64,000 nt of DNA from Methanosarcina sp. KYL-1 (GTDB lineage: Archaea; Halobacteriota; Methanosarcinia; Methanosarcinales; Methanosarcinaceae), in NCBI RefSeq assembly GCF_024372725.1, contig NZ_VOUA01000001.1:186001-250000 (forward strand), in the 5' to 3' direction. The position numbers and the translations under genes were made by a program. The notes under the pieces are model-generated. The model did no database searches and was not told the origin of the DNA. It worked only from the letters and a program-made list of their open reading frames with translations. Positions 39,443 through 42,105 of the stretch are shown piece by piece (within the stretch, counting starts at the first letter, position 1; the number at the start of each line of letters is the position of its first letter).

Positions 39443-39865
39443 ATGGAAAAAGAACTTATGAGGATAGGGGTCTCCCTTCCTGATACCCTTTTGAGCAAAT
39501 TTGATGAGATTATTGAAAAAAGAGGCTATTCTTCCCGTTCGGAAGGCATAAGGGACGCCATCAGAAGCTATATCTCTTACTATGAATGGATGGGTGATAT
39601 CAAAGGCCATCGTGTCGGAACCGTTTCGGTGATTTATGACCACACGAAGCGCGGGCTTTCAAATGCCCTTGCGGATATCCAGCACCACTACACCCACCTG
39701 ATCAAATCTTCCGTACACATCCATCTCGACCACGACAACTGTTTTGAAGTAGTCGTTCTGGACGGGGACGGAGAAGAGATAAAAGAACTTGCCGAGGCCA
39801 TAATGGCACTAAAAGGGGTAAAGTTCGCAAAGCTTACAACTGTGGCATCCAGTGAAAAGATCTGA
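39443..39865 (+). CDS. nikR: Nickel-responsive regulator NikR
   Basis: This 140-residue ribbon-helix-helix repressor has residues 1-48 as the RHH ([33 protein letters not shown]) and a C-terminal ACT-like metal domain. The high-affinity Ni ligands of E. coli NikR are matched: the His in DIQHHYTHL, then HIH and Cys in [18 protein letters not shown]. It represses nickel uptake when Ni is sufficient. Nickel matters here because methyl-coenzyme M reductase, hydrogenases and CO dehydrogenase need it. GGTGATAC lies directly upstream of the ATG. No transporter gene is adjacent. Confidence 0.95.
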
Positions 39866-40025
39866 ACTCGCTTCGGTTAAAGTACGATTCCCCGCATGGG
39901 GATTTATCTCTCCATTTTTGGAGAAACAACAAAAACCATTAAAAAAGGGAAACAGCCAGAAAGGCTGCAATTTTGTTTCCTTTTTCTTTTTTCCTGTAAA
40001 ATTTCCAGTTTTCAACTTTTCATAT
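39866..40025. other. Convergent gap between nikR and the beta-helix gene
   Basis: 160 bases. TCTCCATTTTTGGAGA (about 39908-39923) is a perfect inverted repeat that could stop transcription from either side. A T-rich tract follows at 39975-39996. Confidence 0.45.
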
Positions 40026-41249
40026 TTAATTTTCCAGGGCTGCAGCCTCGGGAAGATCTAATTGCTTAATGCTCAAGGAGACCTTTGACGGGACGAAGAA
40101 ATCCGAGTAAACCACAGGTTCCATAAGCGGCCTGAAATCTGCGCTTCCGGAAGTTTCGTTAATTATGTACGGGGTATCTCCAATACCATTCCCGTCGGAA
40201 TCTTCCCCTGTATAATCGCTCCAGTAGTTGCCTTCCGTTGTGTTCCAGGTGTTTTTGTTATCGTCTTCGGCGTTTATCTCGTTATTAAAGTTATTCAGGT
40301 ACAGGACGTTTCCATCTGAAGCATAAAGTGCAATTCCACCGTAATTCAACTCCAGGTTATTGTTGACAAAGGTGTTGTTTGTGGACGCTTCCTGATAGAT
40401 CCCAATGTCGTTCTTCTGGATCTTGTTGCCGAAAAGGATGCTGTCGTTTGAGTTCAGCAGTTCGATCCCGCCCCAGTAGTTGATGTTCACGGTGTTGTTA
40501 TACAGATAGTTCCCATCGGAGGCTTCGGAATAAATTCCCAGCTCATTTTTGAAGACATGGTTTCCGTATATAATGTTCCTGTCTGACCCGATCAAATCGA
40601 TTCCATCAAATTCATTGAGCTCTGCTGTGTTGTTGATCAGTGTATTGTTGGTTGAATTTTCGATATATACCCCAAGGCTGTTTTTCATGGCTCCGTTCTC
40701 GTATAGGATGTTGTCTTTTCCTCCAAAGACATCGATGCCGTCATAGTAATTGAGATACGCAAGGTTGTTGTACAGGATATTGCTTTCTGCCCCATTGAGG
40801 ATAATTCCTGCTCCGTTGTGTGAAAGGCTGTTGTTGAAAAGCAGGCAGTTTTCCACCTCTTCCAGGTATATGCCTGCCGGTGTCCTCGGGGTATCGTTCT
40901 AGGAAACTGCTCCCCTGATGGTAAAACCACCGACAGTTACGTTATCGGAGTCCACATAGAAAACATCATAATCCGGGTCATCCGGGTACACGAAAGTATC
41001 TGCCGGCTCTCCTCCCTCGGACATCAGAATGACCTCCTTATACACATCGACGTTCTCTATGTAAACTCCAGGGGACACGATAATCGTATCTCCCGGAGTC
41101 GCGTTATCAATTGCTTCCTGGATTGTGGTATAATTTTGGTTCCCGTCATCATCCACGTATAACGTGCTGGCTGCCCCAATATCGGCAAACAATGTGAAAA
41201 AAATAATAAGGATCGCCGATAAGGATACAGCGTATTTCTGATGCTACAT
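40026..41249 (-). CDS. NosD-like beta-helix surface protein with two in-frame TAG codons
   Basis: The frame of 408 codons runs from ATG 41249-41247 to TAA 40028-40026 but contains TAG as codon 2 (41246-41244) and as codon 117 (40901-40899). Translating through them gives a signal peptide (HQKYAVSLSAILIIFFTLFA then DIGAAS), a pectate-lyase-like start (LYVDDDGNQNYTTIQEAIDN, PGDTIIVSPGVYIEN), and NosD/CASH right-handed beta-helix repeats (LGVYIENSTNNTLINNTAEL and others). It ends with a NosD-type YWSDYTGEDSDGNGIGDTPY block. GGTGAGGG lies about 10 bases before the ATG, with a TATA-like palindrome upstream at 41271-41293. Without readthrough, the longest pieces are 97 and 276 residues. Options are pyrrolysine insertion, amber readthrough, or a pseudogene with two nonsense changes. 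Confidence 0.7.
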
Positions 41250-41757
41250 AATTTTCCCCCTCACCAATTTATAATTATATATTTTATAATTATCTTTGTT
41301 TACTATAAGGATTTTGAACAATAGATTCTGAACATTCTATCTAATCCCGGTTCCTCATATCTACTCCCTTTATTCTCTTTTCCCTTGCATCGAGGATAAG
41401 CTCCTGCTCAGAGCCTGTCAAATTACATCCTGTCAGGTTTACTTTGAGTAATTTTAGTTTGAATTTGAGCCAAATTAAAGATGAAAACCAGTCTGTAGAA
41501 CGTGAAGTTTGTAGAAGTCGGAGTCTATATCACGTGGATTTTTTAGAAGCCAAGTTTCTAGAAGATGGCATTCCAATGAAAAAGAGATAGGTATCAGAGT
41601 GCCTAATCTAAGTAGAACAAAAATAAGAGCTTGAAGAACCTTTTTTATAGAGTGAATATTTCGAGCTAATGTGATCCGAATTCACGATCTCTGAATTTCG
41701 ATCTCTTAATTAATGAGTTGCAGTTTCATTCGGTTTCGATTTTTTTTCCCATCTTTT
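41250..41757. promoter_or_regulatory. Promoter region of the amber-containing gene
   Basis: About 500 bases with no gene. ATAATTATA (41271-41279) and TATAATTAT (41285-41293) form a perfect inverted repeat in which a TATA box for the minus-strand gene lies. Beyond 41320 nothing recognisable is seen apart from partial direct words such as TTTCTAGAAG. Confidence 0.4.
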
Positions 41758-42105
41758 TCAAAAGTGTTTTTCAATGGTTTTCAGGAGAAGGCTTCCGAAT
41801 TCCGTGAGTTCGTAGACCTGGAAACTGCGTTCTCTTCTGGAATCTACAAGTCCTGCTTCTTTTAAGAGTTTGAGGTGGTAGGAAAGGGCCGAATGTTTGT
41901 GGTCCGTGGTTTCCACAAGGACACAGACGCAGAGGCTCTGGACTTCCAGGGCTTTGAGGATTTTGAGGCGGGTAGGGTCCGCAAGTACCTTAAACAGGCT
42001 GACAATCTCTCCTACGTCGGTGTTCATGGCCATGTGCACGGCATCAAGCACATCTTGAGGCAGGATGTATGCATTCTGAACTTCTATAAGTTTTTTTTCA
42101 GACAT
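41758..42105 (-). CDS. ArsR/SmtB family metal- or arsenic-responsive regulator
   Basis: This 115-residue winged helix has LFKVLADPTRLKILKALEVQ followed by SLCVCVLVE, the CxC position used for As(III)/Sb(III) or soft-metal sensing in ArsR (classically ELCVCDL). The DNA-reading helix is HSALSYHLKLLKEAGLVDSR. It probably represses its own gene or a resistance gene, but no ars gene is adjacent. AAGTGGAG precedes the ATG. It is a separate transcription unit between a surface gene and the glycosylation region. Confidence 0.9.
   Translation of the reverse strand: MSEKKLIEVQNAYILPQDVLDAVHMAMNTDVGEIVSLFKVLADPTRLKILKALEVQSLCVCVLVETTDHKHSALSYHLKLLKEAGLVDSRRERSFQVYELTEFGSLLLKTIEKHF

What the first reader, a model, noticed from the sequence alone, without database searches (positions are those of the whole stretch)
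40026..41249. Surface beta-helix gene with TAG as codon 2 and again at codon 117
The minus strand has a TATA-like palindrome, a GGTGAGGG ribosome binding site, ATG, then TAG at once. A clean signal peptide and NosD-like beta-helix follow in frame, with one more TAG at 40901-40899. Both interruptions are TAG, never TAA or TGA. I checked the stop codons of the 44 other complete genes in the window: all are TAA or TGA. Methanosarcina decodes UAG as pyrrolysine in methylamine methyltransferases (established). So this may be a new pyrrolysine protein, a gene held in check by amber decoding, or a recent pseudogene. A TAG right after the start would make expression depend on amber-suppressor tRNA charging, a possible switch.
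Basis: partly seen in the sequence, partly recalled or inferred. Interest (0 to 1): 0.85.

Follow-up and report, generated by a model that had tools for sequence, protein, structure and literature searches.

The report
Amber-interrupted beta-helix gene in Methanosarcina
A gene for a secreted repeat protein in a methane-making archaeon carries two "amber" stop signals that this organism can also read as the rare amino acid pyrrolysine; the most likely story is that the stops crept in by chance and are partly read through, which is a known kind of event, and a recently dead gene is the main alternative.

Summary
On the minus strand the gene reads RBS-ATG-TAG and continues in one frame to TAA. 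A second TAG is codon 117 and there is no frameshift. The product is a signal peptide plus a NosD-type right-handed beta-helix. The organism is a Methanosarcina-genus archaeon with pylS, tRNA-Pyl(CUA) and amber-containing mtmB, mtbB and mttB, so UAG can be read as pyrrolysine here.

The gene is lineage-specific. It sits between nikR and an arsR gene that are neighbours in other species, and no orthologue exists in 30 sister species. The proposed orthologue test is therefore impossible in these data.

In a 41% sample of the genome, in-frame TAGs also occur in another NosD gene, a HEAT-repeat protein, a PEF-CTERM surface protein and a PAS histidine kinase. TGA occurs once and TAA never. The excess is modest (P about 0.02-0.09, because TAG is about 40% of possible nonsense changes).

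Best explanation: near-neutral accumulation of ambiguous, partly read amber codons, as reported for Thg1 of M. acetivorans. Main rival: a recent pseudogene. No evidence supports a dedicated switch. The absence of TAG among 44 neighbouring stops is expected.

The parts
40026..41249 (-). NosD-type right-handed beta-helix gene, 407 codons with two in-frame TAG, ends TAA
41244..41246 (-). TAG as codon 2 (Lys in 19 of 25 aligned relatives)
40899..40901 (-). TAG as codon 117, in a variable, length-changing loop between beta-helix rungs
41259..41265 (-). GGTGAGG ribosome binding site, 9 bases before ATG
   Evidence: read from sequence
41266..41290 (-). AT-rich palindromic TATA-like stretch upstream of the RBS
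   Evidence: read from sequence; function not tested
41169..41249 (-). signal peptide (helix 3-23 in the model), approximate 3' limit
   Evidence: sequence; limit inferred
39952..39968 (-). terminator-like hairpin plus T run downstream of the gene
39866..41757 (.). lineage-specific insertion between nikR and arsR; the gap is about 102-322 bp in 16 other Methanosarcina genomes
39443..39865 (+). nikR (nickel-responsive regulator), convergent neighbour
41758..42105 (-). ArsR/SmtB-family regulator, upstream neighbour on the same strand

Best explanation
The gene encodes a secreted or surface NosD-type beta-helix protein that this lineage gained between nikR and arsR. Two sense codons mutated to TAG (codon 2 probably from a Lys codon such as AAG; codon 117 in a variable loop). 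Because the cell makes pyrrolysine and its UAG-reading tRNA, UAG is an ambiguous codon: part of the ribosomes insert pyrrolysine and continue. The ambers were therefore only mildly harmful and could be fixed by near-neutral drift, while TAA, TGA and frameshifts were not. Full-length protein, with pyrrolysine at both sites, would be made at a low level (a few per cent if each site is read 20-30% of the time, as reported for an amber reporter in M. acetivorans). Shown here: the sequence, the machinery, the intact frame, the fold, the absence of orthologues, and similar incidental TAGs in other genes. Inferred: readthrough, pyrrolysine insertion, low-level function.
For: pylS, tRNA-Pyl(CUA) and TAG-containing mtmB/mtbB/mttB in the same genome. 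Only TAG interrupts the frame; no TAA, TGA or frameshift in 407 codons; RBS, start, signal peptide and terminator are kept. High coding score on both sides of codon 117. Codon 2 is Lys in 19 of 25 relatives; codon 117 lies in a loop that varies in length and residue, modelled as a loop between strands 110-112 and 125-130. In a 41% genome sample, TAG sits inside four further frames that look intact: the NosD gene of L003, a HEAT protein with HEAT_2 spanning the TAG, a PEF-CTERM protein, and a PAS kinase with TAG at codon 9. There is one comparable TGA (DUF6141) and no TAA. A NosD gene of another Methanosarcinaceae genus, which also has pylS, carries TAG at codon 17 in its signal peptide. Literature: 20-30% readthrough of a UAG reporter, UAG ambiguous genome-wide, and neutral acquisition of UAG in Thg1 (PMC2933860, PMC3639795).
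Against: The TAG excess is statistically modest (P about 0.02-0.09 depending on which genes are counted) and was sorted partly by eye. No orthologue, so purifying selection could not be tested. Two ambers in series would cut the output strongly, which also fits a gene losing its function. One other TAG gene in the sample (C3:2481) is a 5'-truncated remnant whose relatives have Tyr there, i.e. plainly a pseudogene. No expression or peptide data.
Confidence: 0.5

Rival explanations
1. Recent pseudogene: a dispensable, lineage-specific NosD paralogue that lost its function through nonsense changes that happen to be TAG; any readthrough is irrelevant.
For: NosD genes are many (about 40 matches in the genome) and turn over fast; neither this gene nor the L003 NosD gene has an orthologue. 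TAG is about 40% of possible nonsense changes, so two of two is not rare (0.16). A clearly truncated gene with a TAG exists in the same genome. A TAG right after ATG would stop nearly all translation.
Against: No TAA, TGA or indel in 407 codons; expression signals retained; coding score undiminished; other in-frame stops in long coding frames of this genome are mostly TAG.
Confidence: 0.35
2. Regulated amber switch: the TAG at codon 2 makes surface-protein synthesis depend on charged tRNA-Pyl, for example during methylamine growth.
For: Position right after the start gives a clean on/off gate with no truncated protein; an unrelated PAS kinase with TAG at codon 9 and a NosD gene with TAG at codon 17 in another genus show early TAGs elsewhere. 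The stretch after codon 2 folds somewhat better than shuffles (z -2.4, one of four tested).
Against: No conservation of either TAG, no orthologue, no methylamine genes nearby; a second amber in a variable loop adds nothing to a switch; incidental TAGs occur in unrelated genes.
Confidence: 0.08
3. Assembly or sequencing error produced one or both TAGs.
For: Draft assembly of 66 contigs; reads not available.
Against: Two independent substitutions with no indel would be needed, inside a 418 kb contig; other TAGs, including the genuine methyltransferase ones, assemble correctly.
Confidence: 0.04

Closest known systems
Thg1 (tRNA-His guanylyltransferase) of Methanosarcina acetivorans, neutral pyrrolysine (Heinemann 2009, via PMC2933860 and PMC3639795)
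   Same: In-frame UAG in one lineage only, in a gene unrelated to methylamines, at a site where sense codons serve in relatives; explained by neutral fixation under ambient UAG suppression
   Different: Thg1 has orthologues and biochemical proof that the UAG can be read and is not essential; here there are no orthologues, two TAGs, one directly after the start, and no proof of expression
Methylamine methyltransferases MtmB, MtbB, MttB
   Same: In-frame TAG within an otherwise intact gene in a pyl-bearing genome
   Different: There the TAG is conserved and pyrrolysine is catalytic; here the sites are not conserved and have no catalytic rationale
UAG-containing transposase and TetR genes of M. 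acetivorans and M. mazei (PMC2933860, PMC3639795)
   Same: Non-methylamine genes with in-frame UAG proposed as possible pyrrolysine proteins
   Different: Those recur in several copies or species; this one is single and lineage-specific
NosD / parallel beta-helix surface proteins (PF05048, TIGR03804, NosDFY complex 7o0y/7osf)
   Same: Sequence repeats and right-handed beta-helix fold
   Different: NCBIfam's curated NosD copper-maturation model is far below its cut-off (145 against 300 bits); no nos genes nearby; function unknown, probably surface structure or carbohydrate-related

Membership tests
Pyrrolysine-containing protein | Host encodes PylRS and UAG-reading tRNA-Pyl | tested here: met
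   pylS; tRNA-Pyl(CUA)
Pyrrolysine-containing protein | In-frame TAG with coding sequence and protein homology continuing on both sides | tested here: met
Pyrrolysine-containing protein | TAG conserved among orthologues, or pyrrolysine required for activity | tested here: not met
   No orthologue in 30 congeners; nearest relatives have sense codons at both sites
Pyrrolysine-containing protein | Pyrrolysine residue detected by mass spectrometry or structure | not testable with these tools
   No proteomics available
Neutral (Thg1-like) UAG acquisition | UAG restricted to one lineage at a tolerant site, only TAG among stops | tested here: met
Neutral (Thg1-like) UAG acquisition | Frame under purifying selection despite UAG | tested here: inconclusive
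   No orthologue or second strain; only indirect TAG excess
Pseudogene | Inactivating changes of all kinds, loss of expression signals | tested here: not met
   Only two TAGs; RBS, start and terminator retained. This does not exclude a very recent pseudogene
NosD copper-maturation protein (TIGR04247) | Score above curated cut-off | tested here: not met
   145 against 300 bits
NosD/Beta_helix fold family (PF05048, PF13229) | Score above Pfam gathering cut-off and beta-helix fold | tested here: met
   138 and 91.5 bits against 23.6 and 25.9; model and Foldseek

The most novel reading that the evidence does not exclude
In this Methanosarcina, UAG is a generally tolerated sense codon: besides the methyltransferases, several surface and signalling genes (two NosD proteins, a PEF-CTERM protein whose sorting signal follows a TAG, a PAS kinase with TAG at codon 9) make pyrrolysine-containing full-length proteins, and early TAGs couple their amount to pyrrolysyl-tRNA supply, so that the cell surface responds to methylamine metabolism.
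Probability: 0.1. Interest if true: 0.8.

Novelty: new member of a known kind. Interest (0 to 1): 0.38.

Why it matters
If the full-length protein is made, this would be a pyrrolysine protein with the amino acid directly after the initiator methionine, and a natural test of how ambiguous UAG really is in Methanosarcina. The genome offers several such genes at once, so one proteomics run could decide whether UAG behaves here mainly as a stop, as an ambiguous codon or as a general sense codon. If the gene is dead, it shows how easily amber pseudogenes can be mistaken for recoding in pyl-bearing archaea.

Tried and rejected
Alternative start after the TAG: no ATG/GTG/TTG until codon 20, inside the signal peptide. 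PYLIS-like structure: none at codon 117 (z -0.6); z -2.4 after codon 2 is one of four folds tested and not convincing. Orthologue and dN/dS test: impossible, no orthologue in the genus at E<=1e-60, best 46% identity; the L003 paralogue also lacks one. Outside the genus the nearest matches are 43-47% identical. Column conservation as evidence: codon 117 is only moderately variable (rank 21 of 59 TAG-accessible sites) and codon 2 ranks 37 of 59, so position alone does not discriminate. C3:2481 was first counted as an intact TAG gene and dropped when relatives showed a missing 5' half. ATGTAG pattern searches are uninformative by themselves. A 15-nt inverted repeat at 39932-39946/41767-41781 near the edges of the insertion was judged likely chance.

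Full report
OBSERVATION. The minus-strand gene at 41249-40026 reads GGTGAGG (RBS)-ATG-TAG and continues in frame, through a second TAG at 40901-40899, to TAA at 40028-40026. Read through, the product has 407 residues: a signal peptide, a parallel beta-helix (PF05048 138 bits, PF13229 91.5 bits; TIGR03804) and a C-terminal region. AlphaFold gives a confident beta-helix (pLDDT above 90 for 265 residues), and Foldseek finds the AlgE epimerase A-modules and NosD of the NosDFY transporter. Coding score is high on both sides of codon 117. No usable start codon follows the first TAG before codon 20.

TAG ends 2.2-2.9% of coding-like ORFs in a 1.66 Mb sample (41%) of the genome, so no TAG among 44 neighbouring stops has a 27-37% chance. 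For this gene 39-43% of possible nonsense substitutions give TAG, so two TAGs of two has probability about 0.16.

THE ORGANISM DECODES UAG. The genome (4.04 Mb, 66 contigs) has pylS (C47, 416 bits), tRNA-Pyl with anticodon CUA next to it, and mtmB, mtbB and mttB with in-frame TAG. [quoted passage not shown] acetivorans gave 20-30% full-length pyrrolysine product, and Thg1 acquired a readable, non-essential UAG neutrally (PMC2933860; PMC3639795).

ORIGIN OF THE GENE. In 30 other Methanosarcina genomes there is no orthologue; the best relatives are 40-46% identical, and outside the genus 43-47%. nikR and arsR, which flank the gene, are adjacent (about 102-322 bp apart) in 16 genomes examined.

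SITES. Codon 2 is Lys in 19 of 25 aligned relatives; codon 117 falls in a loop that varies in residue and length and is modelled as a loop between rungs. Both look tolerant of a lysine-like residue, but TAG-accessible sites in general are about as variable, so this is not a test.

GENOME-WIDE CONTROL. Symmetric scans for stops inside coding frames in the sample, with domain checks, gave, besides the methyltransferases: TAG in the window gene (two), in another NosD gene (L003, codon 52), in a HEAT-repeat protein with the HEAT_2 match spanning the TAG, in a PEF-CTERM protein between body and sorting signal, and in a PAS histidine kinase at codon 9. TGA was found in one DUF6141 gene; TAA in none. 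A TAG also occurs in a truncated gene (C3:2481) and at a TAG-ATG junction of PspC and LiaI-like regions. The remaining TAA and TGA cases were judged by eye to be adjacent genes or low-complexity tails. With TAG at 40% of nonsense changes the excess has P about 0.02-0.09, depending on which are counted. This is suggestive, not decisive. Independent support: a NosD gene in another pylS-bearing genus has TAG at codon 17, within its signal peptide.

MECHANISM. Most likely (about 0.5): ambiguous UAG codons acquired by near-neutral drift and partly read as pyrrolysine, giving a small amount of full-length secreted protein. Next (about 0.35): a very recent pseudogene of a fast-turning-over paralogue family. 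A dedicated switch (about 0.08) has no positive evidence beyond the position of the first TAG. Sequencing error is unlikely (about 0.04). Shown: sequence, machinery, fold, synteny, distribution. Inferred: translation, pyrrolysine insertion, any function.

LITERATURE NOTE. From my own knowledge, not verified in the held library: a recent proteomic study reported archaea that read all TAGs as pyrrolysine. My searches did not find it; if correct it raises the prior for readthrough here.

Noticed in passing
L257:18022-18705 minus strand (G000:C6:58022-58705): PEF-CTERM surface protein with an in-frame TAG just before the linker to its C-terminal sorting signal (TIGR03024 29.3 bits, cut-off 23). 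Readthrough would decide between anchored and released protein.
   Followed up: partly
L195:16496-16498 minus strand (G000:C10:56496; gene L003:1498-2673 minus): Second NosD gene with a single in-frame TAG (codon 52); no orthologue in the genus.
   Followed up: yes
L262:1850-4903 minus strand (G000:C10): PAS-rich histidine kinase with TAG at codon 9 and no good downstream start before the first PAS domain.
   Followed up: partly
L242:15571-16791 plus strand (G000:C3): HEAT-repeat protein with TAG at codon 370 inside a HEAT_2 match.
   Followed up: partly
L179:7067-7849 minus strand (G000:C1): PspC domain followed by TAG-ATG and a LiaI-like membrane region in the same frame; either two adjacent genes or a readthrough fusion.
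   Followed up: partly
L227:1441-2559 plus strand (genome G108, another Methanosarcinaceae genus): NosD gene with TAG at codon 17 inside its signal peptide; that genome has pylS.
   Followed up: partly
L197:19269-19754 minus strand (G000:C3): DUF6141 protein with TGA at codon 18, probably a pseudogene.
   Followed up: partly
L196:2202-2825 plus strand (G000:C3): 5'-truncated gene remnant with TAG where relatives have Tyr.
   Followed up: yes
G000:C27:2-781 and C47:2-781: Two mtmB copies each cut by a contig end at the same length, suggesting an assembly collapse of mtmB repeats.
   Followed up: no
window 39932-39946 and 41767-41781: 15-nt imperfect inverted repeat near the two edges of the insertion; AT-rich, may be chance.
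   Followed up: no
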